Assembly (NCBI RefSeq): GCF_003852705.1
Contig: NZ_REFA01000015.1
Coordinates: 1-64,000 of the forward strand
Source: Amniculibacterium aquaticum
GTDB taxonomy: Bacteria > Bacteroidota > Bacteroidia > Flavobacteriales > Weeksellaceae
Length of the DNA: 64,000 bases
Reading direction: 5' to 3'
Position 1 is the first letter of the stretch; each line of letters starts with the position of its first letter. This document shows, piece after piece, positions 2,008 through 48,128 of this stretch. The position numbers and the translations under genes were made by a program. Under the pieces are notes generated by a model, which had not been told where the DNA came from, searched no databases, and saw only the letters and a list, made by a program, of their open reading frames with translations.

Positions 2008-2055
2008 AAAAAATCTCCCAATTTCTTGAGAGATTTTTGTGGGTCCTGAGGGATT
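2008..2055. repeat. 48-bp direct repeat, copy 1 (tRNA-Val terminator plus tRNA 3' end)
   Basis: Identical to 2388-2435, offset by exactly 380 bp. Each copy carries an AAATCTC...GAGATTT terminator hairpin (minus strand) followed by the first bases of a tRNA-Val 3' end. Confidence 0.9.
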
Positions 2056-2136
2056 GACTTCGTCGAATCTTCGATTTCGAACCCCCGACCCTCCCGATGT
2101 TTAATCGGGATGTTCTGAACCAACTGAGCTAAGAAC
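2039..2136 (-). pseudogene. tRNA-Val-derived pseudogene with an inserted segment
   Basis: Minus-strand sequence matches the two intact tRNA-Val genes at 21387-21569 over the D arm (TTCTTAGCTCAGTTGGTTCAG), the T arm (GGGTCGGGGGTTCGAA) and the 3' acceptor. It is broken in three ways. About 21 bp (2056-2076) are inserted between the T arm and the acceptor. The anticodon arm is replaced by a TCCCGAT/ATCGGGA stem whose loop does not hold a TAC anticodon. The 5' acceptor GGGTTCT is not preserved because the neighbouring GIY-YIG reading frame ends in the D arm. A functional tRNA is unlikely. Confidence 0.75.
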
Positions 2137-2371
2137 TGATTAAATTTAAAATCATTTTCTTGCTTTTCCAATTTTTTATTTGAGCTTCTCTTTTCAAAGC
2201 GGAAGATTTATCATCAAATTCTTGGGTAAAAACTATTTTCCAATCCTTGGCTTTGCTAGTAAAACCGTCGTGATTTTCCAAATGCTTTTGCATTCGTTTT
2301 TCTATATCCGAAGTCATTCCGATATAAAACTTGCCTAAAGTTTGAGAAAATAAAATGTATACCAAAAACAT
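2129..2371 (-). CDS. GIY-YIG domain endonuclease-like protein
   Basis: An 80-aa stand-alone GIY-YIG nuclease-fold protein of the UPF0213/UvrC-N type. The start at 2371 (MFLVYILFSQ) puts the first motif VYIL at residues 4-7, followed by FYIGMT and an Arg in IEKRMQKHL, the expected catalytic core. It ends KNWKSKKMILNL. The stop codon TAG lies inside the D arm of a tRNA-Val pseudogene, and a 48-bp repeat containing a tRNA-Val 3' end lies on each side of the gene. Such genes are common next to tRNAs in flavobacteria. A homing-like role is inference; DNA repair or structure-specific cleavage is also possible. Confidence 0.8.
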   Translation of the reverse strand: MFLVYILFSQTLGKFYIGMTSDIEKRMQKHLENHDGFTSKAKDWKIVFTQEFDDKSSALKREAQIKNWKSKKMILNLISS

Positions 2372-2387
2372 ATACAAAATTAAACAA

Positions 2388-2435
2388 AAAAAATCTCCCA
2401 ATTTCTTGAGAGATTTTTGTGGGTCCTGAGGGATT
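2388..2435. repeat. 48-bp direct repeat, copy 2
   Basis: Identical to 2008-2055. It contains the chromosomal-side terminator hairpin of tRNA-Val (minus strand) and runs into the left attachment repeat of the integrative element. Confidence 0.9.
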
Positions 2436-2441
2436 CGAACC
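2419..2441. other. Left attachment site (direct repeat of the tRNA-Val 3' end)
   Basis: GTGGGTCCTGAGGGATTCGA followed by ACC. Identical to 21386-21408. After it the sequence diverges from tRNA (TTATCTC...), marking the element's left border. Confidence 0.85.
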
Positions 2442-4560: not shown

Positions 4561-4788
4561 TTGGAAAAATCTGAAATTCTTAAAAAAGTAGGTAAAAGAA
4601 TTAAAGAAGTGAGAGAATCTAAGGGTTTATCTCAGGTAGAACTTGTTGGCAAAATGCAAGGAGAAATAGACCCCACTAATATTTCTAGAATAGAATCTGG
4701 CAGAACCAATCCTACTATCTATACACTCTATAGAATTGCTGAGGCTTTGGAAGTGAAAGTTATTGAACTAATAGATATTGAAAATTAA
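4561..4788 (+). CDS. XRE-family HTH regulator
   Basis: 75-aa single-domain DNA-binding repressor, essentially one HTH_3 fold: VGKRIKEVRESKGLSQVELV (helices 1-2), NISRIESGRTNPTIYTLYRI (recognition helix and helices 4-5). The start is a TTG at 4561, because in-frame stops lie at 4540 and 4552. No strong Shine-Dalgarno is visible, which is normal in Bacteroidota. It diverges from the 3890-4483 cluster; the inverted repeat at 4539-4559 and the palindrome at 4497-4510 make it the likely regulator of that cluster and of itself. Confidence 0.85.
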   Translation: MEKSEILKKVGKRIKEVRESKGLSQVELVGKMQGEIDPTNISRIESGRTNPTIYTLYRIAEALEVKVIELIDIEN

Positions 4789-5279: not shown

Positions 5280-5669
5280 TTAGGTAAATGCTTCTTCTAA
5301 ATCATACTTTCCATTTCTAGAGAAAGTATTTACATCTGCCTCAAAATTCTTTTCTACAGCAGGCTTAGTTGGTGCTTCTGGAACATACATATACCTGTGA
5401 GTAAGCAAAATAACCTCTCCTGTATCTTTTACAGTATATTCATATGGTGGGCATTCTACCTTCTTTACACTACCTGCAATTTCACTACCTATTAAGGCTT
5501 TGCAGGTTTCTTCATCAAAAGTGGAGGTAATGTAGGCTTTCTTGGCTGTAGCATAGAAACTGCCTGTACTTTGAGATTGTACCATTTCAATACCTCCTGA
5601 AATTTCTAGGGCAAAAAATTCTCTTCCATCTTCTGCCATTCTTTTTTTGTAACTGATTATTCGTACCAT
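5280..5669 (-). CDS. Hypothetical protein of Bacteroidota mobile elements
   Basis: 129-aa soluble protein starting MVRIISYKKRMAEDGREFFA. The N-terminal half is beta-rich (FFALEISGGIEMVQSQSTGS, FYATAKKAYITSTF) and is followed by a Tyr/Pro-rich stretch (ECPPYEYTVKDTGEVILL) and an acidic end (KYDLEEAFT). The overall look recalls small OB-fold or ssDNA-handling proteins carried beside Sak4-like ATPases on such elements, but I cannot assign a family. It has its own upstream non-coding region (5670-6226) and a long-loop terminator. Confidence 0.6.
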   Translation of the reverse strand: MVRIISYKKRMAEDGREFFALEISGGIEMVQSQSTGSFYATAKKAYITSTFDEETCKALIGSEIAGSVKKVECPPYEYTVKDTGEVILLTHRYMYVPEAPTKPAVEKNFEADVNTFSRNGKYDLEEAFT

Positions 5670-6226
5670 TGTTTTTGATTTTTTGAGTTAAACTTTTATT
5701 ATTTGAGATTTACACATACTTACAGCCTATTTCTACAACTATCACCTAGAGAAATAAGGCTATGAACTATCTACAAAGCCCAACACACAGGTGTCTGCGT
5801 GCAGTAATAAGTGGGGGTATTTCGTGGGAGTGTGGGGTTAATAAATTACTAAACTTATTAGTGCAATAGAACTAAAACACTAGAAGTTTCCTAAAGTTTC
5901 CTTTGAAAGTCTATGAGTTAAAACCTATGCCAAGAAGTAGCAGAACTTTCATAACATTCTGTACCCTTTGTTTAGTTATCATTCCTATAAGGCTAGAAGA
6001 TAAACCATATCAAACCTAACTCTTCATTTTTATCTGCCTGAAAATAAAAAGTTTTTTCTTCAGTTGGGTGGGGAGTTTGGGATTTCTATATAAAGGTGGG
6101 GGTATAATTGAAGGAAGCTCATAAATGCATGATTTAGAGTTGTCTGAAATTTTTTCAAAAATATTTTTCTTAATAAATTTTGTTTTATAAATTTGACAAA
6201 ATTTGACAAGAAAATTAAATTCTAAA
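5670..6226. other. 557-bp non-coding region in the element
   Basis: No credible reading frame. It holds an imperfect hairpin (AGCC-TATTTCT near 5724 pairing with AGAAATAAGGCT near 5750), a G-rich stretch containing GTGGGGGTAT at about 5812 that recurs near 6091, and the promoter and operator of the plus-strand defence operon at its right end. It could hold the element's origin, a transfer site or a small RNA; nothing decides between these. Confidence 0.5.
6188..6210 (+). promoter_or_regulatory. Promoter -7 box overlapping a tandem operator
   Basis: TAAATTTG (6188-6195) fits the TAnnTTTG box. ATTTGACAAA (6191-6200) and ATTTGACAAG (6201-6210) form a direct repeat overlapping it, 17 bp before the XRE start codon. 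This arrangement fits autorepression by the downstream XRE protein. Confidence 0.6.
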
Positions 6227-6529
6227 ATGGAGTTGAAAGATATTTTAAAAAATGCTAGAGAAAAAAAATCAATGCTTATGAGAGAAGTTGCTGCTTTAAT
6301 TGAAGTTGATACAGCAATGATAAGCAAATTTGAAAAAGGAGACAGAAACCCTACTAGAAATCAAGTTGAAAAATTAGCAGATATTTTAGAACTAGATAAT
6401 AATATATTGATGAAAATATGGCTTAGAGATAAGTTGGTGAATGAACTAGAAAATGAAGAATTAGCCCTAGAAGCACTAAAAATGGCAGAGAAAAAAATTA
6501 AAGCATTAAATAAGAAACAACAAGGCTAG
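6227..6529 (+). CDS. XRE-family regulator at the head of the defence operon
   Basis: 100-aa protein with an N-terminal HTH_3 domain: MELKDILKNAREKKSMLMRE, VAALIEVDTAMISKFEKGDR, NPTRNQVEKLADILELD, then a charged helical C-terminal extension (residues 65-100, KMAEKKIKALNKKQQG) probably for dimerisation. The ATG at 6227 is chosen over an upstream in-frame TTG at 6203 that would lie inside the direct-repeat operator. The stop is 3 bp from the helicase start, so it is co-transcribed with the Mokosh-like and qat genes and is their likely transcriptional switch. Confidence 0.9.
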   Translation: MELKDILKNAREKKSMLMREVAALIEVDTAMISKFEKGDRNPTRNQVEKLADILELDNNILMKIWLRDKLVNELENEELALEALKMAEKKIKALNKKQQG

Positions 6530-6532
6530 TAT

Positions 6533-9500
6533 ATGACTAATGAAAAACTAAAAAATTGGCTACAATATTATAGAGCATCTTTGATAGATGCATCTAGAGG
6601 AAATAAGTATTCATATTTAGGAGACCCTATTGTTAGAGATAATTTTAGTATTGAAGAACTATCTCAAGAAGAAACTAAATTAATATGGGATGAAAAAAAT
6701 ATGTATTCCTTCAAATTTGAGGAATATGTAACTGATATAGACCAATTAGAAACTTTATATGATGAGGAAGAAGAAGGTTTTGAAGTTGTCAATCTAGGTA
6801 AAGGAGGTAATGATGTAAATTCTGTTAAATTCAATAAAATAGAAATAGCCCCCATTTTTATTCAAAATTCAAAAGAACATACAGAATTTGAGGGTAATGA
6901 TGAAATTCATTATCCCTATTGGATTCCAGCATATTTAAGACAAGATGGCAAACTATTTCCCCCAAAACAAGATGAGATACCTGCATTTCTAAGGGAGTAT
7001 TTAAGCCCCAATCCTAAAGACAGCCCTACTATAGCTGAAATGAGTAAGCTAGATTCTGAATTATCAAATTTTGAATTTAACAAGAATACTTGGAAACAAT
7101 ATTGGAAGGATTGCGAGATTTATTTTACCAAAGTAACAGATAAAAAATACGCTGACTACCAGCAACACATTGTAAAATTAAGAATATGTAAGTACGAAGA
7201 TATTAATACAACAAAGCATATCCTTAATCTCTACAATGACCTTGTTTTTAAGAATAAGGACTCTAACGCAAGCTACAATGTTCTAGAAAAGCTACTGAAT
7301 ACAAATGCTCCTCAAAAAATAAATGGAAGTAAAGAAATTGAAGATATCCTTATTCCCAATCATTATGGGCATATGGGAGAAGAATTTCCATTGTCTAAAT
7401 CACAAAGAGAAGCATTTGCTAAATCACAATACAAAAATCACTCTGATATTTTTGCAATAAATGGTCCTCCTGGTACTGGTAAAACAACTATTCTACAAAG
7501 TTTTATAGCAAATAGTTTAGTTAATGCTGTACTGAATAATACAACACCTCCATTAATTGTGGGTTGTTCTACCAATAATCAAGCTATTACTAATATTTTG
7601 GATAGTATGAAATTAGAAAATAAAACTAATGACATACTACAAGAAAGATGGTTACCTGATGTATCTTCATTTGGATTGTACCTGACAGGAACTTCTAAAA
7701 GTGCAGAAGAATTAAAAAATTACCAATATACTACGAGTCCATTTTTTAGTGATGGTTTTGTTTATCAGCTTGATAAAAATTTAGATATTGTAAAATATGA
7801 AAACTACATTATTAGTAAATTTTTGGAATATGCAAAAGAACAAAAACTTAACTATGATTTCTCAAAAGAAACCACTATTGATAAAGTAAAATCCTATTTA
7901 AAGTACCTTATAGATAATTGTAAAAAAGATATAGACAATTATGTAGATGTAGCACTTTTGGAATATACCATTCCAAGTTTTTTAAAATCACATCATTTTG
8001 AAAATGAAAATGATGTAATACAATCGATTGAAAATACAAAGCAGAATATTGAAAAAACAAAACAACTTATTAGTTCTCTAGAAAGGTATAAAGTGCTTTT
8101 GGAAGAAAAGCATAAGAGCTTCCCTTTTTATATAAAATACTTCCCTTTTTCTAGCTTCAAAAAGATTAAAGAAAATGCTTTTAAATTAGTGCTTCAAGAG
8201 CATTTGGATTTATATACTACACAAACAAAATTTTATCATTATTTTGAAATTCAATCTACCACAGATGAATTGATTTTAAATACTCAAAAACACCTTAATC
8301 AACTAAAAAATAAACTTTCGCAATTAGAAAAAATAATAGAAGAGTGTAGGATAAGACATCAAAAATATGCTCATAAATTACAATCATGGCAAAAGGACTA
8401 TCAATATAAATGGAATAGTTTAATAGAAAAAACTCAAGAAGAGTATCAAAACCTAAATGTAATTGAAGATATTGCTGTAAAACTGGATATTTCTTTAAGA
8501 CATAAATTATTTTGGCTTTGTGTTCATTATAGAGAAGCTGAGTTTATAAAAGAGCAGTTTGATAAAGAAACTACCAGCAAATATGAAAGAAGTGCAGAAG
8601 AATATAGAATAAGACTTGAAAGATTAGCCAAAATAACACCTCTTTTTATTTCCACCTTTCACACTTTACCAAAGTATTGTTCCTACTATTCTTATTCAGA
8701 AGGAAATGTATTTTACAGCAACCTTTTTGATTTTATGATTGTGGATGAGGCAGGGCAAGTTTCCCCAGAAGTAGCAGTTCCTTCCTTTGTGTTTACAAAA
8801 AAACTCCTTACAGTAGGAGATATACACCAAATAGAACCTATTTGGGGGATTTCAGAATCTGTAGATTATAAAAATGCTGAAAAATACAGTATAATAGATA
8901 CAGAAGAACATTTTAAATTTCTTAGAGATTGTGGTTACTTAGCTTCTAGTGGGAGTGTAATGAAACTATCTTTATACAAATCTTATTTCACCTATCAATC
9001 TAACAATGGAGAGATAAAAGATGGGGTATTGCTTAGAGAACACAGAAGATGTTTAGACCCCATCATTCACTATTCTAACAAGTATGTATATCAAAATAGT
9101 TTAATTCTTAAAGGAGGAAAAAAGCATACAAAATCCCATAATCTTCCTAGTGTAGGCTATTTACATATTAATGGATTTTGTGAAAAATACCATTCAAGCA
9201 ATAGAAATATTGCAGAAGCTAACACTATTATTCAGTGGCTAAAAGACCAAAAGGAAATCTTAGAAAAAGCCTATGATAAGTCTTTGCACGATATAGTGGC
9301 TATAGTTACACCCTATTCAGCACAAAAAGATTACTTGAAAAATTTGGTTAAAATCAATTTTTCTCAAGAAATTTCAGATTCTATGACTGTAGGTACTGTA
9401 CATGCTTTGCAAGGTGCAGAAAGACCAATTATCTTATTTTCTCCAACCAATTCAGACCCTAAAAAGCCTTTGTTTATGAATTATGGGGGTAAAAGCAATA

Positions 9501-10147
9501 TGCTAAATGTAGCAGTTACTAGAGCCAAACATTCCTTTTTAGTATTTGGCAATATGGTTGTTTTTAAACAAGGTCAAAATAATCCATCATCTAATCTAGC
9601 AGAACTTTTATATACCTATCCAGATAATACTTTGGATGACACTTTTATTTATTCAAAAAACACTTTGTTTACAGATGATAAAGACAAAGTAAATCATTTA
9701 ACCACATTAGATGAACATAGAAGTGCCTTAAAGAAATGCTTCAAAATTGCAACCTCTGAAGTAATTATTAGCTCTCCTTTTATTTCTATAAATGCTATTA
9801 ATGATGATGGTATTTCAGAACTAATTAAAGATGCAATTAATAGAGAAATTAAAGTGACCATACTCACAGATGAAAATCTGGACATGAAAGATGGCGAGCT
9901 AAAACCACATTCACTAAAGGGCAGAAAATTATTAGAAGAATCTGGAGCAAAATTGATTACATACAAAGGAATACATAATAAGACTATTTGTGTAGATGAC
10001 AAATTACTTATTGAAGGTTCTTTTAATTGGCTTTCTGCTTCTAGGAATGAAGAGAGTGAGTTTGCAAGAAAAGAAATATCACTAGTTCTACAAGGAGCTA
10101 ATGTGCCTTATAAAGTAGATAGAATAAAAGAAATGTTTAATTTGTAA
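6533..10147 (+). CDS. mkoC: SF1 helicase-PLD nuclease fusion, Mokosh type II-like
   Basis: 1204-aa fusion. The helicase part is of the DNA2/NAM7 (COG1112, AAA_11/AAA_12) type: Walker A GPPGTGKT at 311-318, a long coiled-coil-rich insertion (about 440-700), Walker B VDEAGQ at 737-742, then HRR, VTPYSAQKD and VAVTRAKH motifs. The C-terminal 140 residues are a phospholipase-D nuclease domain with one HxKxxxxD motif (H1148, K1150, D1155) followed by EGSFNW. This helicase-PLD order is the single-protein architecture described for type II Mokosh anti-phage systems (MkoC). One PLD motif implies dimerisation for catalysis. It sits between an XRE regulator and qatABCD. Assignment is by architecture; a related but distinct helicase-PLD family is possible. 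Confidence 0.8.
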   Translation: MTNEKLKNWLQYYRASLIDASRGNKYSYLGDPIVRDNFSIEELSQEETKLIWDEKNMYSFKFEEYVTDIDQLETLYDEEEEGFEVVNLGKGGNDVNSVKFNKIEIAPIFIQNSKEHTEFEGNDEIHYPYWIPAYLRQDGKLFPPKQDEIPAFLREYLSPNPKDSPTIAEMSKLDSELSNFEFNKNTWKQYWKDCEIYFTKVTDKKYADYQQHIVKLRICKYEDINTTKHILNLYNDLVFKNKDSNASYNVLEKLLNTNAPQKINGSKEIEDILIPNHYGHMGEEFPLSKSQREAFAKSQYKNHSDIFAINGPPGTGKTTILQSFIANSLVNAVLNNTTPPLIVGCSTNNQAITNILDSMKLENKTNDILQERWLPDVSSFGLYLTGTSKSAEELKNYQYTTSPFFSDGFVYQLDKNLDIVKYENYIISKFLEYAKEQKLNYDFSKETTIDKVKSYLKYLIDNCKKDIDNYVDVALLEYTIPSFLKSHHFENENDVIQSIENTKQNIEKTKQLISSLERYKVLLEEKHKSFPFYIKYFPFSSFKKIKENAFKLVLQEHLDLYTTQTKFYHYFEIQSTTDELILNTQKHLNQLKNKLSQLEKIIEECRIRHQKYAHKLQSWQKDYQYKWNSLIEKTQEEYQNLNVIEDIAVKLDISLRHKLFWLCVHYREAEFIKEQFDKETTSKYERSAEEYRIRLERLAKITPLFISTFHTLPKYCSYYSYSEGNVFYSNLFDFMIVDEAGQVSPEVAVPSFVFTKKLLTVGDIHQIEPIWGISESVDYKNAEKYSIIDTEEHFKFLRDCGYLASSGSVMKLSLYKSYFTYQSNNGEIKDGVLLREHRRCLDPIIHYSNKYVYQNSLILKGGKKHTKSHNLPSVGYLHINGFCEKYHSSNRNIAEANTIIQWLKDQKEILEKAYDKSLHDIVAIVTPYSAQKDYLKNLVKINFSQEISDSMTVGTVHALQGAERPIILFSPTNSDPKKPLFMNYGGKSNMLNVAVTRAKHSFLVFGNMVVFKQGQNNPSSNLAELLYTYPDNTLDDTFIYSKNTLFTDDKDKVNHLTTLDEHRSALKKCFKIATSEVIISSPFISINAINDDGISELIKDAINREIKVTILTDENLDMKDGELKPHSLKGRKLLEESGAKLITYKGIHNKTICVDDKLLIEGSFNWLSASRNEESEFARKEISLVLQGANVPYKVDRIKEMFNL

Positions 10148-10157
10148 AATTATTTTT

Positions 10158-11966
10158 ATGTGGAAAGATAGTGAAACAGATATTGATTTATTGGATTTTG
10201 ATTATTTAATTGAAATCACAAAAGATATTGTTGAAAATGACGAATTATCTCCTTGTACGATTGGGGTTTATGGTGATTGGGGAAGTGGAAAATCTAGTCT
10301 AGTTGAGATGATATTGAAAGATTATGAGAAAAAGGAAAACTACTTATGTTTAAAATTTAATGGTTGGCTGTTTGAGGATTATGAAGATGCTAAAAATGCT
10401 TTGTTAGGAAGTATTCTTGATGAAATAAATAAGAAAAAAGGAATAACTACAAAAGCAAAAAATACAATCAAAAAACTATTTAAGAATATTGACTACATTG
10501 ATTTGGCAAGTAAAGGGTTAAAGTATGGAACTGATTTTTTATTGACTGGAGGCATAGGGACAATTGCAGATATAACTATTCAAAATGTTTTAAATAAAAC
10601 AAAATCATTGGGGGATGGAGTAACTTCAGAAGAAATAAAAAAAGTACTTGAGGGAACATTTAAAAAAGAAGAGGTAAGAAAGAATTTAAGAGAATTTCAA
10701 TCTGATTTTGAAAAATTACTTAAGGAAACTAAAATTGAAAAATTGGTTGTTTTTATTGATGAACTGGATAGGTGTAATCATGATACTATCTTGGAAACAT
10801 TAGAAGCAATAAGATTATTTCTTTTTACAAAAGGAACGTCATTTATTATTGGTGCTGACGAAAGGCAAGTTATGTATGCTGTTAGAAAAAAATTCCCAGA
10901 GGTAAAGGGTAATCAAATGGATATTGGGAAAGAATATTTAGAAAAAATGATACAATATCCTATAAAAATCCCTCAATTAGGAGTTAATGAAGTTGAGTTT
11001 TATATTACATGCTTATTCTTTCAAAATGAGTTTAAAGAGAATTATTCTGAAATAATAAAATTTATTAAAACTAAAAGAAAAGAAGATTTTCTAAATTTTG
11101 AAATTACTTATGATTTGATTAAAAATGAGTTTGATTATTTAGATGAAAGTAAAATTAGAGAAGTCATATCAATTAGTAAACAAATATCGTCTGTTTTATC
11201 CAATAGCTTAAATGGCAATCCCAGACATTGTAAAAGATTTTTAAATTCTTTATCAATGCGTATAAAAATGGCTAGCTTCAAAAATATAATTCTGGATAAA
11301 AAAGTATTAGCAAAACTTATGCTGATTGAATATTTTAAAGATGAGGTATTTAAAAAGATAGGTCAATTACAATCAAATGAAAAAGGCAAACCAAATGAGC
11401 TTAAATTAATTGAAGATGATGAATGGGAAAATGTCAAAGATTTGAAATTATGGGAAAATGATGAATGGTTTTTAAAATGGGCTAAAACAGAACCTAAACT
11501 TTCAGAATATGATTTACAGAAGTATTATTACTTTACAAGAGAAAGTTTAAAAAGTAATTCTTTTAAAACTATTTTGTCTTTAAGTCCAGAAGCTGAAGCT
11601 GTTCTAAATAATCTACTATCAAATTCTGATAGTTTTAGAAAAGAAGCAGTAAAAAAAGCTTCAATCATTAATGATTATGAATCACTTGAAATCCTTAAGT
11701 CAATTTTTTATTCTATAGAATCTTCATCAGATATTGAAACTAATATGTTTAAATCATTCATGGAATGGGCTTCCACAAAAGAAGTGTTATACACTGATGC
11801 AATTTCAAAGTTATCAAGTTTACCAGCAGAAAGTATAAAAATTTCATTTATACCTAATATATTTGAATTTGGCAAAATATCCAATAAAGAAGCAGAAATT
11901 AAAGCACTTACAGACAAGTGGAAAGTTGAAAATCCTAAATTAATAACAGCAATTAAAAATAAATAA
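10158..11966 (+). CDS. qatA: QatA: KAP-family P-loop ATPase
   Basis: 602-aa KAP NTPase. The Walker A GDWGSGKS is at residues 39-46 and the Walker B FIDELDRC places Asp201/Glu202. Between them is the KAP insertion, with a hydrophobic, glycine-rich stretch (YGTDFLLTGGIGTIADI) that may touch membrane. The C-terminal third is helical. With the three following genes it reproduces the qatABCD anti-phage system (KAP ATPase, QatB, QueC-like, TatD-like). It begins 10 bp after the helicase-PLD gene and its stop is 1 bp from the qatB start. The QatA role in sensing or energising is not established; the identity rests on order plus motifs. Confidence 0.92.
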   Translation: MWKDSETDIDLLDFDYLIEITKDIVENDELSPCTIGVYGDWGSGKSSLVEMILKDYEKKENYLCLKFNGWLFEDYEDAKNALLGSILDEINKKKGITTKAKNTIKKLFKNIDYIDLASKGLKYGTDFLLTGGIGTIADITIQNVLNKTKSLGDGVTSEEIKKVLEGTFKKEEVRKNLREFQSDFEKLLKETKIEKLVVFIDELDRCNHDTILETLEAIRLFLFTKGTSFIIGADERQVMYAVRKKFPEVKGNQMDIGKEYLEKMIQYPIKIPQLGVNEVEFYITCLFFQNEFKENYSEIIKFIKTKRKEDFLNFEITYDLIKNEFDYLDESKIREVISISKQISSVLSNSLNGNPRHCKRFLNSLSMRIKMASFKNIILDKKVLAKLMLIEYFKDEVFKKIGQLQSNEKGKPNELKLIEDDEWENVKDLKLWENDEWFLKWAKTEPKLSEYDLQKYYYFTRESLKSNSFKTILSLSPEAEAVLNNLLSNSDSFRKEAVKKASIINDYESLEILKSIFYSIESSSDIETNMFKSFMEWASTKEVLYTDAISKLSSLPAESIKISFIPNIFEFGKISNKEAEIKALTDKWKVENPKLITAIKNK

Positions 11967-11967
11967 A

Positions 11968-12813
11968 ATGGGGACATCTAGTATGTATAGTGGTTATTCT
12001 AATGGGAGTTCACAAAAAAATCCATTACTACCAAGTGATTTTGATGATGATGTAGGTGCTGGGAATGACAATGATAATAGTGAGGGAAATGAGCAAAATG
12101 AAAACCAAAATGCAGATAATCAACAACAGCCCCCTCCATCTATCTCAAACTGGCAGTCTGCTAAGAATTTAATGTCAAAACTAGCATCAGGGACCTCAAA
12201 ATCAACAAATGCAAGGGGAAGAGCTGTTTCAAAATATATAAAAGCCTATGGAGGTTCAAAATCTGCAACTAAAAATGCAGTATCAGGTATTAATACCACT
12301 TATGGATTAGGAAGTTTTATAAATAGTGCTTCAACACAAGGCATAAAAGAAACCCTTGATATTTATAAGATTGAATACCAAAATAAATCTACAAGTGAGG
12401 TGCTTTTTGATTTGATTAATTTTTTAGCACCTAATCCTATAACAAAAGAAGATTCTATTGCTAGAAAAGCATTGATTCTTACTATGGAAAAATTATACGA
12501 ACTTATAGAAAATGAAGGATTAGAAATTGAGTCCATAGAAAAGCTAGATATTAATACTATTAATGTAATTATCCCTCTAAATATAGAAAATTACATTTAT
12601 GAAAGATTATTAAATGACTTAGGAAGTAGAATTGAAAACAATTCTATTAATTCAACAAGTGCTGTAAAATTGGAAAAAGAATTAAAAGATTATATAAATT
12701 CTAAAGTTGAAATAGCCTTTAAAGGCAAGGACCTTTCTGGTGCTAACTTATCTAAACCTGAAATTGAGAGTTTATATAATCAGTGTTACACTGTAATGGA
12801 AAATATGATATGA
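11968..12813 (+). CDS. qatB: QatB
   Basis: 281-aa protein of unknown biochemical role and second member of the Qat system. Residues 1-65 are low complexity (Asn/Asp/Glu/Gln and PPP). Residues 60-120 contain a Gly/Ser/Lys-rich segment (GTSKSTNARGRAVSKYIKAY; YGGSKSATKNAVSG) that is typical of QatB, and the rest is alpha-helical (FLAPNPITKEDSIARKALIL). Its stop overlaps the qatC ATG in an ATGA. Identification depends on position between qatA and qatC as well as the RAVSKYIKAYGGS-type block. Confidence 0.88.
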   Translation: MGTSSMYSGYSNGSSQKNPLLPSDFDDDVGAGNDNDNSEGNEQNENQNADNQQQPPPSISNWQSAKNLMSKLASGTSKSTNARGRAVSKYIKAYGGSKSATKNAVSGINTTYGLGSFINSASTQGIKETLDIYKIEYQNKSTSEVLFDLINFLAPNPITKEDSIARKALILTMEKLYELIENEGLEIESIEKLDINTINVIIPLNIENYIYERLLNDLGSRIENNSINSTSAVKLEKELKDYINSKVEIAFKGKDLSGANLSKPEIESLYNQCYTVMENMI

Positions 12814-14108
12814 AAAATATAGTTTTTAAATTAAATAAAGGTGATAGTTTTCAAGTTGATAATTCTGACTATGAAATTGATTTTACTAAAAAGAATGATT
12901 TTCATTCGACATTTTATAAATTCAAAAGAAGAATTTATAAAATGCCTAATTTTTTTCAGAAAGAGGCTCTGGATTTATATTATATTTCTTTAATGATATA
13001 TTATGCTGATAGAAAGATTTTAAGAACAGGTACATATGACAACTGGACAAGACAATTTAAGCTATACATTCCTGTTTTAGAATTAGATAAATGGAATAAC
13101 AACAAATTGCTCTTTACTGACATGATGAATTATTTAAGTGGTGATTTGTGGGAGTTTGAATTTAGACAAAGAGAATTAAACTTAACAGAAGAAAAGTATT
13201 TATCAAGCATTAAAAATCATTATGTTAATAAAAAATTAAGTATTGATTATATCTGTATGCTTTCAGGAGGCTTGGATTCTTTTATAGGTGCAATAGACAT
13301 TCTTTCAAATAATAAAGATGTTGCTTTTGTTGGACATTATGGAGGGGGCAAAGGGGTAAAGCCTTTTCAAGATAAAGTAAGAGAACTTTTAAAAAATAAA
13401 TTTTCTATTAATGATGAACAATTTTTTAATTTTAATGCAACAGCAATAGGAGGAATTGAAGATAGTACTAGGACTCGTTCATTCTTGTTTTTCTCTCTTG
13501 CAATAATTTTAGCATCTTCCTTTGATAAAGAAATACGATTATATATTCCGGAAAATGGGCTTATTTCATTAAATATCCCTTTAACAAATACTAGATTAGG
13601 TAGTAGTAGTACAAGAACTACCCACCCTTATTATTTAAGTTTGTTTCAAAAATTACTAGATAATTTAGGGGTTAAGGTAAAATTGTATAATCCATATCAA
13701 TTTTTTACAAAAGGAGAAATGCTCAAAAACTGTATTGATAATGAATTTATTAAAGAAAATTACATAAGCACAATGTCTTGCTCTCATTCAGACCAAGTTA
13801 GATACTCAAAAGGAAAAAAACCAAAACATTGTGGCACTTGTTTACCTTGTACAATTAGAAGAGCATCAATTGTTGAAGCTTTTAATATTGATAATACAGA
13901 ATATGAAGACCCTAATTATAAGAAACCTAAAGCTAAAAATGAATTAAAATCATTCAAAATAGGAGTTCTTGATTACAAAGCAAATCCAAATAATCAATTT
14001 ACGATTCAAATTGCAGGAAATTTGAAAACCAATTTTGGAGAGTTTAAAGATTTATACAAAAGAGGGATGAAAGAACTATCAAATTTTTTAGATTCTATAA
14101 ATGAATAA
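12810..14108 (+). CDS. qatC: QatC: QueC-like (7-cyano-7-deazaguanine synthase fold)
   Basis: 432-aa protein. The start is the ATG at 12810, overlapping the qatB stop (ATGA) and preferred over a GTG 27 bp upstream. An N-terminal extension of about 145 residues precedes the QueC-like PP-loop ATPase domain: SGGLDS at 152-157 binds ATP. A four-cysteine zinc site (C324, C341, C344, C347; CGTCLPC) is preserved as in QueC. Real QueC makes preQ0 and is about 220 aa, so the extension and context mark the Qat branch. In such systems the QueC-like protein is thought to modify a protein or nucleotide substrate; the substrate is unknown here. It overlaps qatD by 8 bp. Confidence 0.93.
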   Translation: MKNIVFKLNKGDSFQVDNSDYEIDFTKKNDFHSTFYKFKRRIYKMPNFFQKEALDLYYISLMIYYADRKILRTGTYDNWTRQFKLYIPVLELDKWNNNKLLFTDMMNYLSGDLWEFEFRQRELNLTEEKYLSSIKNHYVNKKLSIDYICMLSGGLDSFIGAIDILSNNKDVAFVGHYGGGKGVKPFQDKVRELLKNKFSINDEQFFNFNATAIGGIEDSTRTRSFLFFSLAIILASSFDKEIRLYIPENGLISLNIPLTNTRLGSSSTRTTHPYYLSLFQKLLDNLGVKVKLYNPYQFFTKGEMLKNCIDNEFIKENYISTMSCSHSDQVRYSKGKKPKHCGTCLPCTIRRASIVEAFNIDNTEYEDPNYKKPKAKNELKSFKIGVLDYKANPNNQFTIQIAGNLKTNFGEFKDLYKRGMKELSNFLDSINE

Positions 14109-14838
14109 TTTTCTTTATGATACACATTCGCATTTAGATTTAGTTAAAGATTTAGACTCACTAGTTTCAGAAATAGAAAAGAGAAAAATATATACTATTG
14201 GAGTAACAAATTTACCTCCTTTATATAAAAAACTAAATGATAGGCTTAAATCAAAGTATATCAAACCTGCTTTAGGTTTTCATCCAGAACTTATAAAGCA
14301 GTATCAAAAATATATTCCTGAAATGTGGGAATTATTAACTGATGCAAAATATATAGGAGAAGTTGGGCTAGATTTTAAAGTATCGTTGGAATCTAAATTA
14401 ATTCAGATTAATTTCTTTGAAGAATTAATAAAAAGATGTAATGAACTAGGGGGTAAAATTCTTACTATACACTCTAGAGGAAGTGCTGAAGATATTGTAT
14501 CAATTATTGGTGAAAATTTTAATAGTAAATATATTTTACACTGGTATTCTGGAAATTTGAAAACTTTGAATAATGCCTTAAATAATGGAGCATACTTTTC
14601 AATTAATTACTCTATGACTAATACTATTTCAGGACAAAAAATAATTGCTAATATTCCCAATGAAAAATTATTATTGGAATCTGATGCCCCTTTTGTTAAG
14701 TATAATGGAAATAGAAATTTTAGTACTTTAGATATAGATATTATTGTTAAGAAATTATCAGAAATTAAAAAAATTGAATATCAAGATATGAGAAGTATTC
14801 TGTGTAATAATTTTAAAAATCTTTTAGTTGATGTATAA
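14101..14838 (+). CDS. qatD: QatD: TatD-family metal-dependent nuclease
   Basis: 245-aa TatD-like amidohydrolase-fold DNase. All metal-site residues of the family are seen: DTHSHLD (H9, H11), GEVGLDF (E87), TIHSRGS (H124), LHWYSG (H147) and LESDAPF (D195). The gene overlaps qatC by 8 bp and ends the defence operon, before a bidirectional hairpin at 14844-14870. Presumed to be the nuclease effector of QatABCD, acting in the cytoplasm; this is established only at the level of the family system, not for this protein. Confidence 0.93.
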   Translation: MNNFLYDTHSHLDLVKDLDSLVSEIEKRKIYTIGVTNLPPLYKKLNDRLKSKYIKPALGFHPELIKQYQKYIPEMWELLTDAKYIGEVGLDFKVSLESKLIQINFFEELIKRCNELGGKILTIHSRGSAEDIVSIIGENFNSKYILHWYSGNLKTLNNALNNGAYFSINYSMTNTISGQKIIANIPNEKLLLESDAPFVKYNGNRNFSTLDIDIIVKKLSEIKKIEYQDMRSILCNNFKNLLVDV

Positions 14839-14840: not shown

Positions 14841-14870
14841 AAACCACCCCAAATTAATGGGGCAGTTCCT
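14841..14870. terminator. Bidirectional terminator between qatD and DUF3871
   Basis: CCCC/GGGG stem around AAATTAAT. T-rich runs follow in both directions (CCTTTT on plus, TGGTTTTATT on minus). It separates the convergent defence operon and replication-like module. Confidence 0.65.
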
Positions 14871-14871: not shown

Positions 14872-16077
14872 TTAACTCAAAAACCAATGATAATCTGAAT
14901 TACCATTGAGAGTTTTTTGAATGCCCTTTGAGAATTCAAAGGCATTCAAATTCCTATCTAGGAAAGTATCTATATACGAAGATTTATTAGCCTGTGTAAA
15001 GAGATTGTACACATCCCACAAGTTTATCCTGCCATCTTCTTGCCTACAGAAATTATTGTCCTCGTAATAATCTTTTGCCATAGTGTTGATGTGGCTGTCA
15101 TTAAAATTAAGTAGAGGAATTTTCTGTTTTTCTGCTTTAGGCAGGTGTTGGTATAATCTTGATTTCCCAATGAGCTGAGCAAATTGATGTTCAGAAAGAT
15201 AATCTTGGGTAAGTTCCTTCATTTCCATGAGGTGCAGTTCTGCATTATAGTTTTGCATCACTTCTAGGGCTTTAGATTGTAATTCTAGAGCATTAGAAAC
15301 TCGCATATCTTCTACAAAACCATCACTCCAAACACAGAGATTCATGCATACTTGATTTTGAAAGCCTATAAAGAATTTGAATTTCTCTAAGGTTTTTTTG
15401 TTGTATAAATTCTCTTGATTATATGCCCTTACTCCTCCTATGCACAAGGCTAATTCATTTCCATTCACCACTTCTGTAATGCTAGGGATTTTCACTATAA
15501 AAGCCATTCTTTCGTAGTAAATGGTTTTCTCATGGTCTAATAGGTCTTTTGCATTTTTGTAAATGGAATCTGGAGTTCTGCCTTTCACAATATGGCTTAC
15601 TCGTATCTCTGGCTCTGTAATGCTATGATGTGGAAATACCTTTTGGGTAGCATTGAGTACCACTTCTATAAACTCCTGATGTGCTACAGTTCTCTCATTA
15701 TCTTTGCTAAAGACTGGCACTATGCAATCTTGTTTTAGATGGTGTAAAGGCACTTCTGTAGTATTAGCTATAATAAAAGGATTGGGTTCACTTTCTTTTG
15801 GTGCTTTTACAGCAGAAGTAACTACAGAATTAGGCATTAAAAAAGCCTGAACTTCATTTTTAGGTTCAGGCTTGGGTTCTTCATTCATTTTACTAGGATA
15901 GAAAATTTCAGCATCTTCTATGCTATCAGAATTATCTAGAAATATATCCCTTATAGGTTTCTTAGCTACATTCCTTAATTCCATTGTACTAGTTTCTTTC
16001 CCTATTATGGTAGTAGAATTTGGAATTTCAAAGGCTTGTTCTAAAGTGGCAGGTTTAATGATGTTTTGCGTGTCCAT
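14872..16077 (-). CDS. DUF3871 family protein
   Basis: 401-aa protein. Residues 1-110 are low-complexity and Pro/Glu-rich. From about residue 112 (PLHHLKQDCIVPVFSKDNER) it matches the DUF3871 family of Bacteroidota mobile elements, with conserved blocks such as EPEIRVSHIVKGRTPDS, ERMAFIVKIPSI, ALCIGGVRAYNQENL and INLWDVYNLFTQANKSSYID. The family's role is unknown; LCIGG and WDVYNLFT segments recall DUF932-like plasmid/phage proteins. The start overlaps the 3' end of the upstream RecA-like ATPase gene by 23 bp, suggesting they are expressed and perhaps act together. Confidence 0.85.
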   Translation of the reverse strand: MDTQNIIKPATLEQAFEIPNSTTIIGKETSTMELRNVAKKPIRDIFLDNSDSIEDAEIFYPSKMNEEPKPEPKNEVQAFLMPNSVVTSAVKAPKESEPNPFIIANTTEVPLHHLKQDCIVPVFSKDNERTVAHQEFIEVVLNATQKVFPHHSITEPEIRVSHIVKGRTPDSIYKNAKDLLDHEKTIYYERMAFIVKIPSITEVVNGNELALCIGGVRAYNQENLYNKKTLEKFKFFIGFQNQVCMNLCVWSDGFVEDMRVSNALELQSKALEVMQNYNAELHLMEMKELTQDYLSEHQFAQLIGKSRLYQHLPKAEKQKIPLLNFNDSHINTMAKDYYEDNNFCRQEDGRINLWDVYNLFTQANKSSYIDTFLDRNLNAFEFSKGIQKTLNGNSDYHWFLS

Positions 16078-21385: not shown

Positions 21386-21408
21386 GTGGGTCCTGAGGGA
21401 TTCGAACC
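21386..21408. other. Right attachment site in tRNA-Val
   Basis: Same 23 bp as 2419-2441, here forming the T-arm and acceptor end of an intact tRNA-Val gene. Confidence 0.85.
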
Positions 21409-21461: not shown

Positions 21462-21494
21462 GAATTTTTTTTTAAAGGTTTCGTTTCCTTTCTG

Positions 21495-21569
21495 TGGGTC
21501 CTGAGGGATTCGAACCCCCGACCCTCTGGGTGTAAACCAGATGCTCTGAACCAACTGAGCTAAGAACCC
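21495..21569 (-). tRNA. tRNA-Val (anticodon TAC), second copy
   Basis: Identical 75-nt tRNA-Val, 33 bp upstream of the first on the minus strand. Co-transcription of the tandem pair is likely. Confidence 0.96.
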
Positions 21570-44877: not shown

Positions 44878-44951
44878 TCCTCCTTAGCTCAGTTGGTTAG
44901 AGCATCTGACTGTTAATCAGAGGGTCGCTGGTTCGAGCCCAGCAGGAGGAG
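44878..44951 (+). tRNA. tRNA-Asn (anticodon GTT), copy 1
   Basis: 74 nt: acceptor TCCTCCT/AGGAGGA, anticodon stem TCTGA/TCAGA around CTGTTAA, T-loop GGTTCGAGCCC, discriminator G. Confidence 0.97.
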
Positions 44952-44954
44952 CAA

Positions 44955-44986
44955 GACTCAAATCGTAAGGTTTGAGTCTTCTTTTT
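44955..44986 (+). terminator. Terminator between the two tRNA-Asn genes
   Basis: GACTCAAA/TTTGAGTC hairpin followed by TTCTTTTT. Confidence 0.7.
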
Positions 44987-45011
44987 AAAGTTTTAGGCAA
45001 AAAAAGGACAT

Positions 45012-45085
45012 TCCTCCTTAGCTCAGTTGGTTAGAGCATCTGACTGTTAATCAGAGGGTCGCTGGTTCGAGCCCAGCAGGAGGAG
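45012..45085 (+). tRNA. tRNA-Asn (anticodon GTT), copy 2
   Basis: Identical to copy 1, starting 134 bp after it, including part of the 5' flank (GGACATTCC). Directly followed by CCA in the genome. Confidence 0.97.
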
Positions 45086-45093
45086 CCAACAGC

Positions 45094-45131
45094 AATCCAG
45101 TAAGTCAATGATTTACTGGATTTTTTGTTTT
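45094..45131 (+). terminator. Terminator after tRNA-Asn copy 2
   Basis: AATCCAGTAA/TTACTGGATT hairpin followed by TTTTG. Confidence 0.8.
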
Positions 45132-45228
45132 TATTCGGTTTTTTACCCACAACTTTTGTCATTGATCTTTGGTTGCCGTCATCATTATCAATAAGAATAC
45201 TGTATTTTAGCATTTTCTAAATAACAAC

Positions 45229-46686
45229 ATGTTCACACAAGAATTACAATCCAAGATAGACCAAGTTTGGTTGGCGTTTCACAGTGGTGGTTTGTCCAAT
45301 CCGCTTTCTGTTATCGAGCAGATTACTTTTTTACTCTTCATCAAGCAGTTGGACGAGCTCCAAAATAGGGCGCAACAAGAAGCCCTTATCACCGGCGACC
45401 CATCCGGATTTATCTACACCACAGAAAATCAGGACTTGAGATGGAGCAATTTCAAAAATATTTCGCCCGAAGAAATGTTCAGGTTGTTTCAAAAAGAAAA
45501 CGGTGTGTTTGATTTTATGAAAAACTTTGGCGGAAAAAGCACCGCCTTCTCCAAGTTTATGAAAAATGCCGCATTTATGATTCCCACGCCCAGACTTCTG
45601 GCGCAGGTGGTAGAAATGTTGGACAACATAGACATGAAAGACAAAGACACCAAAGGCGACCTTTACGAATACATGTTGAGCAAACTCTCTACTGCCGGCA
45701 GCAACGGACAGTTTAGAACGCCAAGACACATCATCAAAATGATGGTAGAACTCATGAAGCCCACCACAGAAGATGTGGTGTGCGATCCCTCCGCCGGGAG
45801 TTGCGGCTTTTTGGTAGGTGCGGCAGAATACATCAATACCCATTATAAACAAGAATTGCTAAAACCTGCGGTGCAAAATCATTATCAGAACAGCCTGTTC
45901 CAAGGGATGGAGTTTGACCCGACCATGATCCGGATTGGTGCTATGAACCTCATTTTGCACGGTATAGAAAACCCACAGCTGAAAGATGTAGATTCTCTGT
46001 CCCAAGCCAATGCCGATTTTGAAGACAAGGTATCTTTGATACTTGCTAATCCGCCTTTCAAAGGGAGTTTGGACAAAGATGCGGTGGACGAAAAAGTAAT
46101 TGCTATGGTAGATTCCAAAAAAACAGAACTCTTGTTTTTGGGATTGATGCTGAAAGGTCTAAAAATAGGTGGTAGATGTGCGGTGATTATCCCAGACGGT
46201 GTCTTGTTTGGCTCTTCTACTGCCCACAAAAAAATTAGAAAAGAACTGGTAGAAAACCAGGCGCTGCAAGCGGTAATCTCTATGCCTTCCGGGGTTTTTA
46301 AGCCTTATGCCGGAGTATCTACCGCCATCCTTATTTTTACCAAAACCAATGCCGGAGGTACAGACCAAGTTTGGTTTTACGATATGAAAGCCGATGGCTA
46401 CAGCTTGGACGACAAGAGAAACCCTGTGAAAGAAAACGATATCCCAGATGTGGTTGCACGCTACCACAACCGAGAAAACGAAACCCATAGAGCCAGAACA
46501 GAACAAAGTTTCTTTGTACCCAAACAAGAAATTGCAGACAATGGATATGATCTTAGCATTAACAAATACAAAGAAGTAGTCTATGAGCAAAAAATATACG
46601 CCAAACCTGTAGAGATTATTGCCAATATCCAAAAACTAGATGAGGAGAGGAGAGAGTTGATGGTTGAACTTTTAAATCTAAATTAA
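45229..46686 (+). CDS. hsdM: Type I restriction-modification DNA methyltransferase
   Basis: 485-aa N6-adenine methyltransferase subunit. The HsdM N-terminal helical domain is at residues 1-130; then comes the SAM-binding motif DPSAGSCGFLVGA and the catalytic NPPF at 274-277 (LANPPFKGS). It works with HsdS for sequence recognition and with HsdR for cleavage. Its last base overlaps the hsdS start (TAATG). It lies 143 bp downstream of the second tRNA-Asn gene. Confidence 0.96.
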   Translation: MFTQELQSKIDQVWLAFHSGGLSNPLSVIEQITFLLFIKQLDELQNRAQQEALITGDPSGFIYTTENQDLRWSNFKNISPEEMFRLFQKENGVFDFMKNFGGKSTAFSKFMKNAAFMIPTPRLLAQVVEMLDNIDMKDKDTKGDLYEYMLSKLSTAGSNGQFRTPRHIIKMMVELMKPTTEDVVCDPSAGSCGFLVGAAEYINTHYKQELLKPAVQNHYQNSLFQGMEFDPTMIRIGAMNLILHGIENPQLKDVDSLSQANADFEDKVSLILANPPFKGSLDKDAVDEKVIAMVDSKKTELLFLGLMLKGLKIGGRCAVIIPDGVLFGSSTAHKKIRKELVENQALQAVISMPSGVFKPYAGVSTAILIFTKTNAGGTDQVWFYDMKADGYSLDDKRNPVKENDIPDVVARYHNRENETHRARTEQSFFVPKQEIADNGYDLSINKYKEVVYEQKIYAKPVEIIANIQKLDEERRELMVELLNLN

Positions 46687-47777
46687 TGTATAAAAAAGTT
46701 GAGCTTGGAGAGGTACTTCAATATGAGCAACCAACAAATTACATTGTTGATAGTGATTTGTATAATGATGAATTTGAAATTCCAGTATTAACAGCAGGTA
46801 AATCTTTTATTCTTGGTTATACAAATGAAAATCACAATATATACACTAAATTACCTGTAATAATATTTGATGATTTTACAACAGCTACAAAATTTGTAGA
46901 TTTTCCTTTTAAAGTAAAATCTTCAGCAATGAAAATTTTGAGTTGTAATGAAAATGTTGCTGATATTAGGTTTTTGTTTTATTTAATTCAGACTATCAAA
47001 ATAAATTCAGAACAACATCAAAGATATTGGATTTCTAAATTTTCTAAAATCCAAATCCCACTTCCCTCTCTTTCTACGCAAAAAGCGATTGCGGAGAAGT
47101 TGGACAAAGCCGATGCTTTAAGGAAAAAAGACCAAGAACTCCTTGCACAATATGATGAATTGGCACAGTCTATTTTTATAGAAATGTTTGGCGACCCGGT
47201 GAAAAATGAAATGGGGTGGGAGAAAGTGATAGTAGATAAAATTACATTACCAATAAAAAATTTAGGTAAAATAACAGAACCTGATTATATTGAATATGTA
47301 GATATATCATCTGTGGATAATATAAGAAAGAAAATTGTTAGTACAACTTCGTATAAGATTGATGAAAGACCTTCAAGGGCTCAACAAATCCTAAAAGCTG
47401 GAGATGTATTATTATCAACAGTTCGTCCAAATTTAAAAAATATTGCAGTAAATAATTGTGATGGATTTATTGGGTCAACAGGATTTTATGTTTTTAGGTG
47501 TAAAAATGAATTAATAGATGAAAATTTTCTATTTGAATTCTTAAATTCAGATTCTGTAACTAGTAAGTTTGAAGGAATGGTATCTGGTGCTAATTACCCT
47601 GCTTTAAAAGCATCAGATATTAGAAATTTTCATGTAATTATCCCACCTCTCGCTCTCCAAACCGCATTTGCAGAGAAGATAAAGAACATAGAGTTACAGA
47701 AGGCATTGGTAAAAAGGCAGGCAGAGCAGTCAGAAGATTTGTTTCAGGCATTGTTGCAAGAGAGTTTTTCTTTTTAG
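46686..47777 (+). CDS. hsdS: Type I restriction-modification specificity subunit
   Basis: 363-aa HsdS with two target-recognition domains. TRD1 is residues 1-115, then the first conserved helix (LPSLSTQKAIAEKLDKADAL ...), TRD2 about 175-315, and the second helix (IPPLALQTAFAEKIKNIELQ ...). The two helices act as a ruler setting the spacer of the bipartite target. The TRD coding DNA is visibly more AT-rich than hsdM and the helix regions, consistent with domain shuffling. The target sequence cannot be read from this. Confidence 0.93.
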   Translation: MYKKVELGEVLQYEQPTNYIVDSDLYNDEFEIPVLTAGKSFILGYTNENHNIYTKLPVIIFDDFTTATKFVDFPFKVKSSAMKILSCNENVADIRFLFYLIQTIKINSEQHQRYWISKFSKIQIPLPSLSTQKAIAEKLDKADALRKKDQELLAQYDELAQSIFIEMFGDPVKNEMGWEKVIVDKITLPIKNLGKITEPDYIEYVDISSVDNIRKKIVSTTSYKIDERPSRAQQILKAGDVLLSTVRPNLKNIAVNNCDGFIGSTGFYVFRCKNELIDENFLFEFLNSDSVTSKFEGMVSGANYPALKASDIRNFHVIIPPLALQTAFAEKIKNIELQKALVKRQAEQSEDLFQALLQESFSF

Positions 47778-47782
47778 TCAAA

Positions 47783-47842
47783 ATAGCAAATGTTAGTTGT
47801 GCTATTCCGCAAATGTTGCAACAGGGTTTTGGCAAATAACCG
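47783..47842. repeat. 60-bp direct repeat, copy 1
   Basis: Matches 48015-48074 over 60 bp, starting 6 bp after the hsdS stop. Each copy contains two GCAAATGTT words and ends with GGCAAATAACCG. Confidence 0.92.
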
Positions 47843-47910
47843 TACAAGCCACACTATACTCATGTGAAAGCAAAGCTTCTATTCCTACTTCTGTTGATTG
47901 TTGACACAAC

Positions 47911-47955: not shown

Positions 47956-48014
47956 AACAATTGGTGTTAAAGAATCCATAGAACCTAAAGGTTTTCACAT
48001 AGTTTTTAGATGAG

Positions 48015-48074: not shown

Positions 48075-48128
48075 GAAAAGGAACAACGCTGTAAAACACT
48101 ATTAATGAATACTTTTTCTGTTTTTTTT

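What the first reader, a model, noticed from the sequence alone, without database searches (positions are those of the whole stretch)
6227..14838. Mokosh-like and Qat systems packed as one XRE-headed operon
XRE, helicase-PLD, qatA, qatB, qatC and qatD are on one strand with gaps of 3, 10 and 1 bp and overlaps of 4 and 8 bp. Two systems usually described as separate seem to share one promoter and one regulator. They could act jointly or be co-regulated.
Basis: partly seen in the sequence, partly recalled or inferred. Interest (0 to 1): 0.75.

Follow-up and report, generated by a model that had tools for sequence, protein, structure and literature searches.

The report
Two defence systems stacked in one slot
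A mobile DNA element in a Bergeyella-like bacterium carries two known virus-defence gene sets packed head to tail in its cargo slot; they probably share a promoter, but relatives carry each set alone, so they look like stacked modules rather than one joint machine.

Summary
An XRE gene, a complete Mokosh type II gene (mkoC) and a complete qatABCD operon lie on one strand (6227-14838) with the stated gaps and overlaps; catalytic motifs are intact. There is no terminator-like site on that strand until just after qatD, and no TAnnTTTG motif in the 560 bp before qatA. One transcript headed by the XRE promoter is likely, but unproven.

Joint function is not supported. Of 12 mkoC-bearing and 17 qat-bearing genomes found in two samples of the phylum, only this one has both. 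E. coli ATCC 11775 also has both, over 200 kb apart. The closest XRE-mkoC relative (87% aa) lacks qat, and its DNA match ends at the mkoC stop. A qatABCD relative (60-69% aa) lacks mkoC and sits between remnants of the same flanking genes. The locus is the cargo slot of a 19-kb tRNA-Val element, whose empty site is seen in a same-genus genome.

The broader finding is the slot: in 43 of 56 related loci a variable 1.6-12 kb cargo lies between DUF3871 and a conserved small gene, and in 19 of 37 tested slots the largest cargo protein matches a PADLOC model.

The parts
6192..6209 (+). tandem direct repeat TTTGACAA-NN-TTTGACAA, candidate operator/promoter region of the XRE gene; overlaps a TAnnTTTG motif at 6188
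   Evidence: only match in the window with up to 1 mismatch, 0.04 expected; largely conserved in the relative G217. Function inferred.
6227..6529 (+). XRE/HTH_3 regulator (first gene)
   Evidence: PF01381 38 bits on the frame from 6203; 78% identical over 76 aa in G217, where it also precedes mkoC
6533..10147 (+). mkoC: SF1 helicase with C-terminal PLD nuclease domain (Mokosh type II)
   Evidence: PADLOC MkoC 1039 bits full length; AAA_11, AAA_12, PLDc_2; GPPGTGKTT at 311, DEAG at 738, HxKx4D at 1148
10158..11966 (+). qatA, KAP NTPase
   Evidence: PADLOC QatA 398 bits; NCBIfam QatA 463 bits, below its cut-off of 600; KAP_NTPase; GDWGSGKSS at 39
11968..12813 (+). qatB
   Evidence: NCBIfam QatB 108 bits over cut-off 100; N-terminal MGTS invariant among 5 aligned QatB
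12810..14108 (+). qatC, QueC-like
   Evidence: NCBIfam QatC 452 bits over cut-off 280; SGGLDS at 161, STRTTHP at 276, cysteines 333, 350, 353, 356
14101..14838 (+). qatD, TatD-family nuclease
   Evidence: PADLOC QatD 200 bits; NCBIfam QatD 222 bits, just under its cut-off of 230; TatD_DNase
14847..14862 (+). terminator-like hairpin just after qatD
   Evidence: pattern scan; not evidence of function by itself
5280..5669 (-). w5280: conserved small gene that bounds the cargo slot on the left
   Evidence: homologue downstream of DUF3871 on the same strand in 43 of 56 related loci; no Pfam match
14872..16077 (-). DUF3871 gene, right boundary of the cargo slot
   Evidence: PF12987, 495 bits
16055..17062 (-). 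AAA_24 ATPase, element core
   Evidence: PF13479
17345..19840 (-). DEAD/ResIII helicase, element core
   Evidence: PF04851, PF00270
19895..21079 (-). tyrosine integrase
   Evidence: PF00589, Arm-DNA-bind_5
2419..2441 (+). left attachment copy of the 23-bp tRNA-Val 3' end
   Evidence: perfect 23-bp repeat of 21386-21408; uninterrupted site in G401
21386..21408 (+). right attachment copy, 3' end of tRNA-Val

Best explanation
Two complete, separately known anti-phage systems (Mokosh type II with its own XRE regulator, and qatABCD) have been stacked head to tail in the cargo slot (between DUF3871 and w5280) of a ~19-kb integrative element inserted in a tRNA-Val gene. Shown: gene content, intact catalytic motifs, slot boundaries, integration site, and the existence of each module alone in relatives. 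Inferred: the XRE protein autorepresses from tandem TTTGACAA repeats at the promoter; because qatA has no leader of its own, the qat genes are co-transcribed with mkoC and fall under the same control. Each system then works by its own route: MkoC as a helicase-coupled PLD nuclease acting on phage nucleic acid, and Qat through a QatC-dependent modification of the QatB N-terminal glycine, with QatA and QatD affecting the phage range. The benefit of stacking is shared expression and shared mobility, not a joint biochemical machine.
For: Full-length family matches. XRE-mkoC alone in G217 / Bergeyella sp. STEG19: 87% aa, 84% DNA match from 5643 to 10148, ending at the mkoC stop, no qat. qatABCD alone in G272 between a w5280 remnant and a DUF3871 3' remnant. 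23-bp att repeat and empty site in a same-genus genome. Slot conserved with variable cargo. No leader or TAnnTTTG motif just before qatA here, whereas in G272 about 430 bp separate w5280 and qatA. qatABCD follows other defence genes elsewhere. MGTS, SGGxDS and TxT features of Qat present (PMC13279940).
Against: No transcript or binding data. The lack of a -7 motif is weak evidence in AT-rich DNA; one TAnnTTTG lies at 11858 before qatB and many sigma-70-like matches exist. G272's leader was not itself tested for a promoter. Codirectional neighbours are as common downstream of qatD as upstream of qatA (6 of 15 each), so tight packing may be ordinary defence-island crowding. The operator role of the repeat is inference.
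Confidence: 0.74

Rival explanations
1. One reading: Mokosh and Qat form one joint immune operon whose proteins act together, for example MkoC feeding a substrate or signal to the QatBC complex.
For: Tight packing on one strand and probable shared transcript. Both systems contain nucleic-acid enzymes. Co-occurrence in one genome, not adjacent, is seen in E. coli ATCC 11775 and, position not stated, reported for a Tenacibaculum (PMC10013915).
Against: Adjacent in 1 genome only, of 12 with mkoC and 17 with qat in the samples. Each module occurs alone in close relatives. QatB and QatC alone protect E. coli from phage lambda-vir with no added Mokosh (PMC13279940). qat neighbours vary.
Confidence: 0.07
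2. Adjacent but independently transcribed: qatA is driven by a promoter inside the mkoC 3' end, so nothing is shared except position.
For: A sigma-70-like scan gives matches throughout the region, at chance density. Real promoters need not fit a simple motif.
Against: No TAnnTTTG motif in 9600-10160, and no separate leader before qatA. No terminator-like site on the + strand between mkoC and qatA.
Confidence: 0.17
3. Assembly chimera: the mkoC-qatA junction is an artefact of joining two elements in a draft genome.
For: The genome is a 74-contig draft; elements of this family are repeated in some genomes (5 DUF3871 matches in G541).
Against: This genome has one mkoC (E <= 0.001), one QatC (E <= 1e-40) and one DUF3871 match (E <= 1e-30), so there is no second copy to join. 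The element's genes are in order and both att copies are present.
Confidence: 0.03

Closest known systems
Mokosh type II (MkoC)
   Same: Single protein with N-terminal helicase and C-terminal PLD domain, full-length match to the PADLOC model
   Different: Preceded by its own XRE gene and followed by qatABCD; neither is part of the definition as I recall it (Millman et al. 2022, not read; type II description seen in passages of PMC11672841 and PMC10013915)
qatABCD (Qat)
   Same: All four genes in canonical order, with QatB MGTS, QatC SGGxDS, a TxT motif and four cysteines
   Different: No leader of its own; starts 10 bp after another system. QatA and QatD score below NCBIfam cut-offs. The conserved Pro16/Trp18 of P. 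aeruginosa QatB (PMC13279940) is not evident in the alignment
RptR-, BrxR- and CapKS-controlled defence loci
   Same: A regulator encoded with, or upstream of, several defence genes; RptR represses by binding direct repeats in the promoter of an island in which DarTG2 lies inside a type I RM system (outlines and abstracts of PMC12255303, PMC9122601, PMC13373217)
   Different: Here the regulator is an XRE protein and the systems are Mokosh II plus Qat. No binding or repression shown
Defence-cargo hotspots in mobile elements (E. coli and Pseudomonas islands)
   Same: Defence genes clustered at recurrent sites or islands (search listing and start of abstract only for PMC10121019 and PMC12629846)
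   Different: This slot lies between DUF3871 and w5280 in elements of this bacterial family; the only paper in the library naming DUF3871 concerns iron response (listing)

Membership tests
Mokosh type II | one protein with SF1 (COG1112-like) helicase and C-terminal PLD nuclease domain | tested here: met
   MkoC model 1039 bits over its full length; AAA_11/AAA_12 and PLDc_2
Mokosh type II | intact helicase and PLD catalytic motifs | tested here: met
   GPPGTGKTT at 311, DEAG at 738, one HxKx4D motif at 1148; motif meanings recalled
Mokosh type II | phage defence activity | not testable with these tools
   needs plaque assays
qatABCD | qatA, qatB, qatC, qatD in order on one strand | tested here: met
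qatABCD | NCBIfam cut-offs for all four proteins | tested here: inconclusive
   QatB and QatC over the cut-off; QatA 463 of 600 and QatD 222 of 230 below. One PADLOC model of each family matches over most of the protein
qatABCD | QatB N-terminal MGTS with disordered tail; QatC SGGxDS, TxT motif and Zn cysteines (PMC13279940) | tested here: met
   MGTS invariant; SGGLDS, STRTTHP, C333 and CGTCLPC aligned to the solved QatC 9vlk. That TRT equals the paper's T278/T280 is inferred from the alignment. Tail disorder not tested
Single joint Mokosh-Qat system | recurrent linkage across genomes | tested here: not met
   only G000 among 12 mkoC and 17 QatC genomes; none in 5 mkoC and 2 qatA viral contigs; in E. 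coli ATCC 11775 the two are over 200 kb apart
Integrative element at tRNA-Val | integrase next to tRNA 3' end, flanking direct repeat, empty site in a relative | tested here: met
Co-regulated operon under the XRE | one transcript and XRE control of both parts | not testable with these tools
   only indirect sequence evidence

The most novel reading that the evidence does not exclude
This bacterial family carries an undescribed group of tRNA-integrating elements (integrase, helicase, AAA_24, DUF3871, w5280) with a dedicated defence-cargo slot between DUF3871 and w5280. In that slot whole defence systems are swapped and sometimes fused end to end, so that a system lacking its own leader (here qat) is captured by the regulator of its new neighbour (XRE-mkoC). 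If so, the slot makes composite, co-regulated defence operons, and its many unassigned cargo genes are good candidates for unknown defence systems.
Probability: 0.35. Interest if true: 0.58.

Novelty: new member of a known kind. Interest (0 to 1): 0.38.

Why it matters
It shows how defence operons can be built by stacking modules in a mobile element's cargo slot, with one regulator possibly taking over a second system. It also warns that tight gene packing alone does not make two systems one machine. The DUF3871-w5280 pair offers a simple marker for finding new defence genes: in 18 of 37 tested slots the largest cargo protein had no PADLOC match at E <= 1e-20.

Tried and rejected
Joint system: rejected as the main reading for lack of adjacent recurrence. 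I followed this up: E. coli ATCC 11775 has a full mkoC at about 0.87 Mb, a fragment at 4.12 Mb and qat at 4.33 Mb, and the qat neighbourhood holds no mkoC. That the control is this same strain is my assumption. My E. coli DNA queries for qat (19 genomes; 16 genomes) did not list this strain, so they undercount qat in E. coli.

'Qat is always appended behind another system': tested and not upheld. Upstream codirectional ORFs (150 aa or more, within 350 bp) occur at 6 of 15 qat loci of the phylum, but downstream ones also at 6 of 15. Two of the 17 QatC genomes were left out of that count: G627 (no qatA found) and G803 (contig edge); in G877 no qatD was found and distance was taken from qatC. Named qat loci opened: 20, 19 scorable (starts at the record end); 9 of 19 have an annotated codirectional gene within 150 bp of qatA, 3 of 19 with a defence-like product (SIR2 plus ATPase; ATPase plus restriction endonuclease; NERD plus DUF3883). 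PLSDB gene tables are incomplete.

Mokosh or Qat in other DUF3871 slots: none found among cargo ORFs of 120 aa or more in the 43 other slots. Structure of w5280: model too poor to use (mean pLDDT 55, two sequences), no fold search made. The search for related loci in genome contigs returned one relative only. Scans of 104 cargo proteins as two alignments show only the 25 commonest families of 215 and 272, so they were not used for counts. E. coli mkoC and qat hit lists were not intersected, being shown in part or searched with one query. Paper searches on the pairing and the element.

Full report
What is there. The window is contig C15 of a 2.55-Mb, 74-contig genome. The only named relative found for mkoC in genome contigs is a Bergeyella sp. 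MAG. MkoC is a full-length Mokosh type II protein (PADLOC 1039 bits; helicase and PLD domains). QatA-D all match their own families, with QatA and QatD under the NCBIfam cut-offs. The features required for Qat defence in P. aeruginosa (QatB N-terminal MGTS; QatC SGGxDS and TxT; PMC13279940: abstract, first part of the text and two results sections read) and the Zn cysteines are present; Pro16/Trp18 of QatB is not evident. All six frames are open.

One transcript? The evidence is indirect. No terminator-like site lies on the + strand between 5500 and 14847, which is right after qatD. Before the XRE there is a TAnnTTTG motif (6188) overlapping a tandem TTTGACAA repeat (6192-6209), the only such repeat in the window (0.04 expected) and largely kept in the relative G217. 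In 9600-10160, before qatA, there is no TAnnTTTG motif; one lies at 11858, before qatB. In G272, a qat locus in the same slot, about 430 bp separate the w5280 start from qatA; the w5280 end of this stretch resembles the window's (78% over 67 bp) and the rest does not. In the window mkoC coding sequence, matched in G217 up to its stop, runs to 10 bp before qatA, so no separate leader remains. I infer co-transcription from the XRE promoter. The use of TAnnTTTG as the Bacteroidota -7 motif is recalled, G272's leader was not tested for promoters, and the general promoter scan found no more matches than chance. The model that XRE represses its own promoter from direct repeats follows the RptR example (PMC12255303, abstract) and is not shown here.

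Two modules, not one. The DNA match runs from window 5643, just inside w5280, to 10148, the mkoC stop, and no qat gene is found in the 10-kb flanks. In G272 qatA-D (69, 62, 64, 60% aa) sit alone, with a w5280 remnant on the left and the 3' remnant of DUF3871 on the right, next to DNA matching the window's tRNA-Asn genes. The window's composite therefore joins what these relatives carry separately, and the seam falls between mkoC and qatA. Whether XRE-mkoC was inserted in front of a resident qat or two elements recombined cannot be told. G+C is 0.29 for mkoC and 0.25-0.30 for qat, against 0.32-0.36 for the element core and 0.38 for nearby chromosome.

No adjacent recurrence. mkoC (E <= 1e-100) was found in 9 of 395 genomes of the order sample and 6 of 395 of the phylum sample, 12 distinct genomes. 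QatC above its cut-off was found in 7 of 395 and 13 of 395, 17 distinct genomes; five more with only sub-cut-off QatC-like matches also lack mkoC. Only this genome has both. The other two genomes of the genus lack mkoC at E <= 1e-60. Viral contigs gave 5 mkoC and 2 qatA loci without the other partner. Phage hits share no record. Plasmid rows shown for the two queries do not overlap, but most rows were not shown. Against this, the control 'Escherichia coli' rings for both families; in E. coli ATCC 11775 the nearest mkoC piece, a fragment, is about 210 kb from qat and the full gene lies at the other side of the chromosome map, with no mkoC beside qat. A published Tenacibaculum genome lists both systems without saying where (PMC10013915, passages). 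With such low frequencies a single adjacent case says little either way.

Qat next to other systems. Among 15 scorable qat loci of the phylum, 6 have a codirectional gene of 150 aa or more within 350 bp upstream of qatA, and all 6 are defence genes: MkoC here, a type II methyltransferase behind a IIG enzyme (G110), a IIG enzyme (G591), type I specificity subunits (G677, G697) and BrxL behind a PglX (G593). An Mrr-like candidate (PDC-S02) lies 534 bp upstream in G057. But codirectional genes downstream of qatD are just as common (6 of 15; their identity was not tested). Among 19 scorable named qat loci, 3 have a defence-like annotated gene within 150 bp upstream. Qat thus joins different neighbours, and the arrangement shows no special upstream bias. 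XRE or HTH genes near qatA without mkoC also exist (L028; Vagococcus; Acinetobacter).

The element. The locus is the cargo of an integrative element: integrase, helicase, AAA_24 ATPase and DUF3871 on the minus strand, then the cargo, then w5280. A perfect 23-bp repeat of the tRNA-Val 3' end lies at 2419-2441 and 21386-21408 (also in the second tRNA-Val, 21494-21516), 18.9 kb apart. In the same-genus genome G401 the tandem tRNA-Val genes are directly followed by a GIY-YIG gene (60% aa) whose counterpart in the window lies beyond the left repeat; this is the empty site. Synteny further left differs in G401.

The slot. DUF3871 (E <= 1e-30) occurs in 48 of 246 family genomes. I fetched all 56 matching loci outside this genome. 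A w5280 homologue lies downstream on the same strand in 43 of 56; two of the 13 without it are on fetched stretches under 5 kb. The interval is 1.6-12.1 kb and its gene pattern differs in most elements. Three slots with repeated gene patterns (L069, L091, L116) were dropped; 3 of the remaining 40 had no ORF of 300 aa. The largest protein of each of the other 37 was scanned: 19 of 37 match a PADLOC model at E <= 1e-20, including Lamassu LmuB, Gabija GajA, Tmn, type I, IIG and III restriction enzymes and candidate systems. Of three housekeeping controls one (a Clp-type ATPase, name recalled) also matched, probably through shared AAA motifs, so single AAA or methyltransferase hits should be read with care. 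A small XRE gene lies beyond w5280 in 36 of 45 loci (the 43, the window and G272); in the window this is 4561-4788, distinct from the XRE that heads the cargo.

Verdict. A shared promoter is likely but unproven. A joint system is unlikely. The wider, more useful result is the defence-cargo slot of these DUF3871 elements; I found no description of it in the searches made, and the library lacks most subscription journals.

Noticed in passing
window 2008-2435: A GIY-YIG gene (2129-2401) lies between two identical 48-bp copies (2008-2055, 2388-2435) of a hairpin plus tRNA 3' end, beside a tRNA-like relic with an insertion (about 2039-2136). G401 has a similar GIY-YIG beside a tRNA-like gene called with anticodon tta.
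   Followed up: partly
window 44878-52707: Type I RM genes (N6_Mtase 45229-46686; HSDR 49360-52707) with a Fic gene (48181-49347) lie beside tandem tRNA-Asn genes; in G272 the decayed qat element lies next to DNA matching this tRNA-Asn region.
   Followed up: partly
L020 10931-14836 and L021: In two genomes mkoC is followed by three codirectional genes, the first within 8 bp; in L020 the third matches candidate PDC-S58 and the Cas13-ApeA model.
   Followed up: no
L149 6972-11462: On a Hymenobacter plasmid a WYL-domain regulator gene lies 9 bp upstream of the mkoC relative, another regulator-headed Mokosh II.
   Followed up: no
L093, L083, L084, L080, L097 cargo slots: Large cargo proteins (971-2242 aa) without a PADLOC match at E <= 1e-20, in the same slot as known defence systems: candidates for new systems.
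   Followed up: no
L162 (G627): A qatBCD cluster in which no qatA was found next to qatB by the queries used.
   Followed up: no
E. coli chromosomes: The mkoC query is covered at 80% or more in 837 of 5426 E. coli genomes; in many of the 30 rows shown, K-12 included, the helicase gene yjhR matches about a third of it at 69% DNA identity, perhaps a remnant.
   Followed up: no
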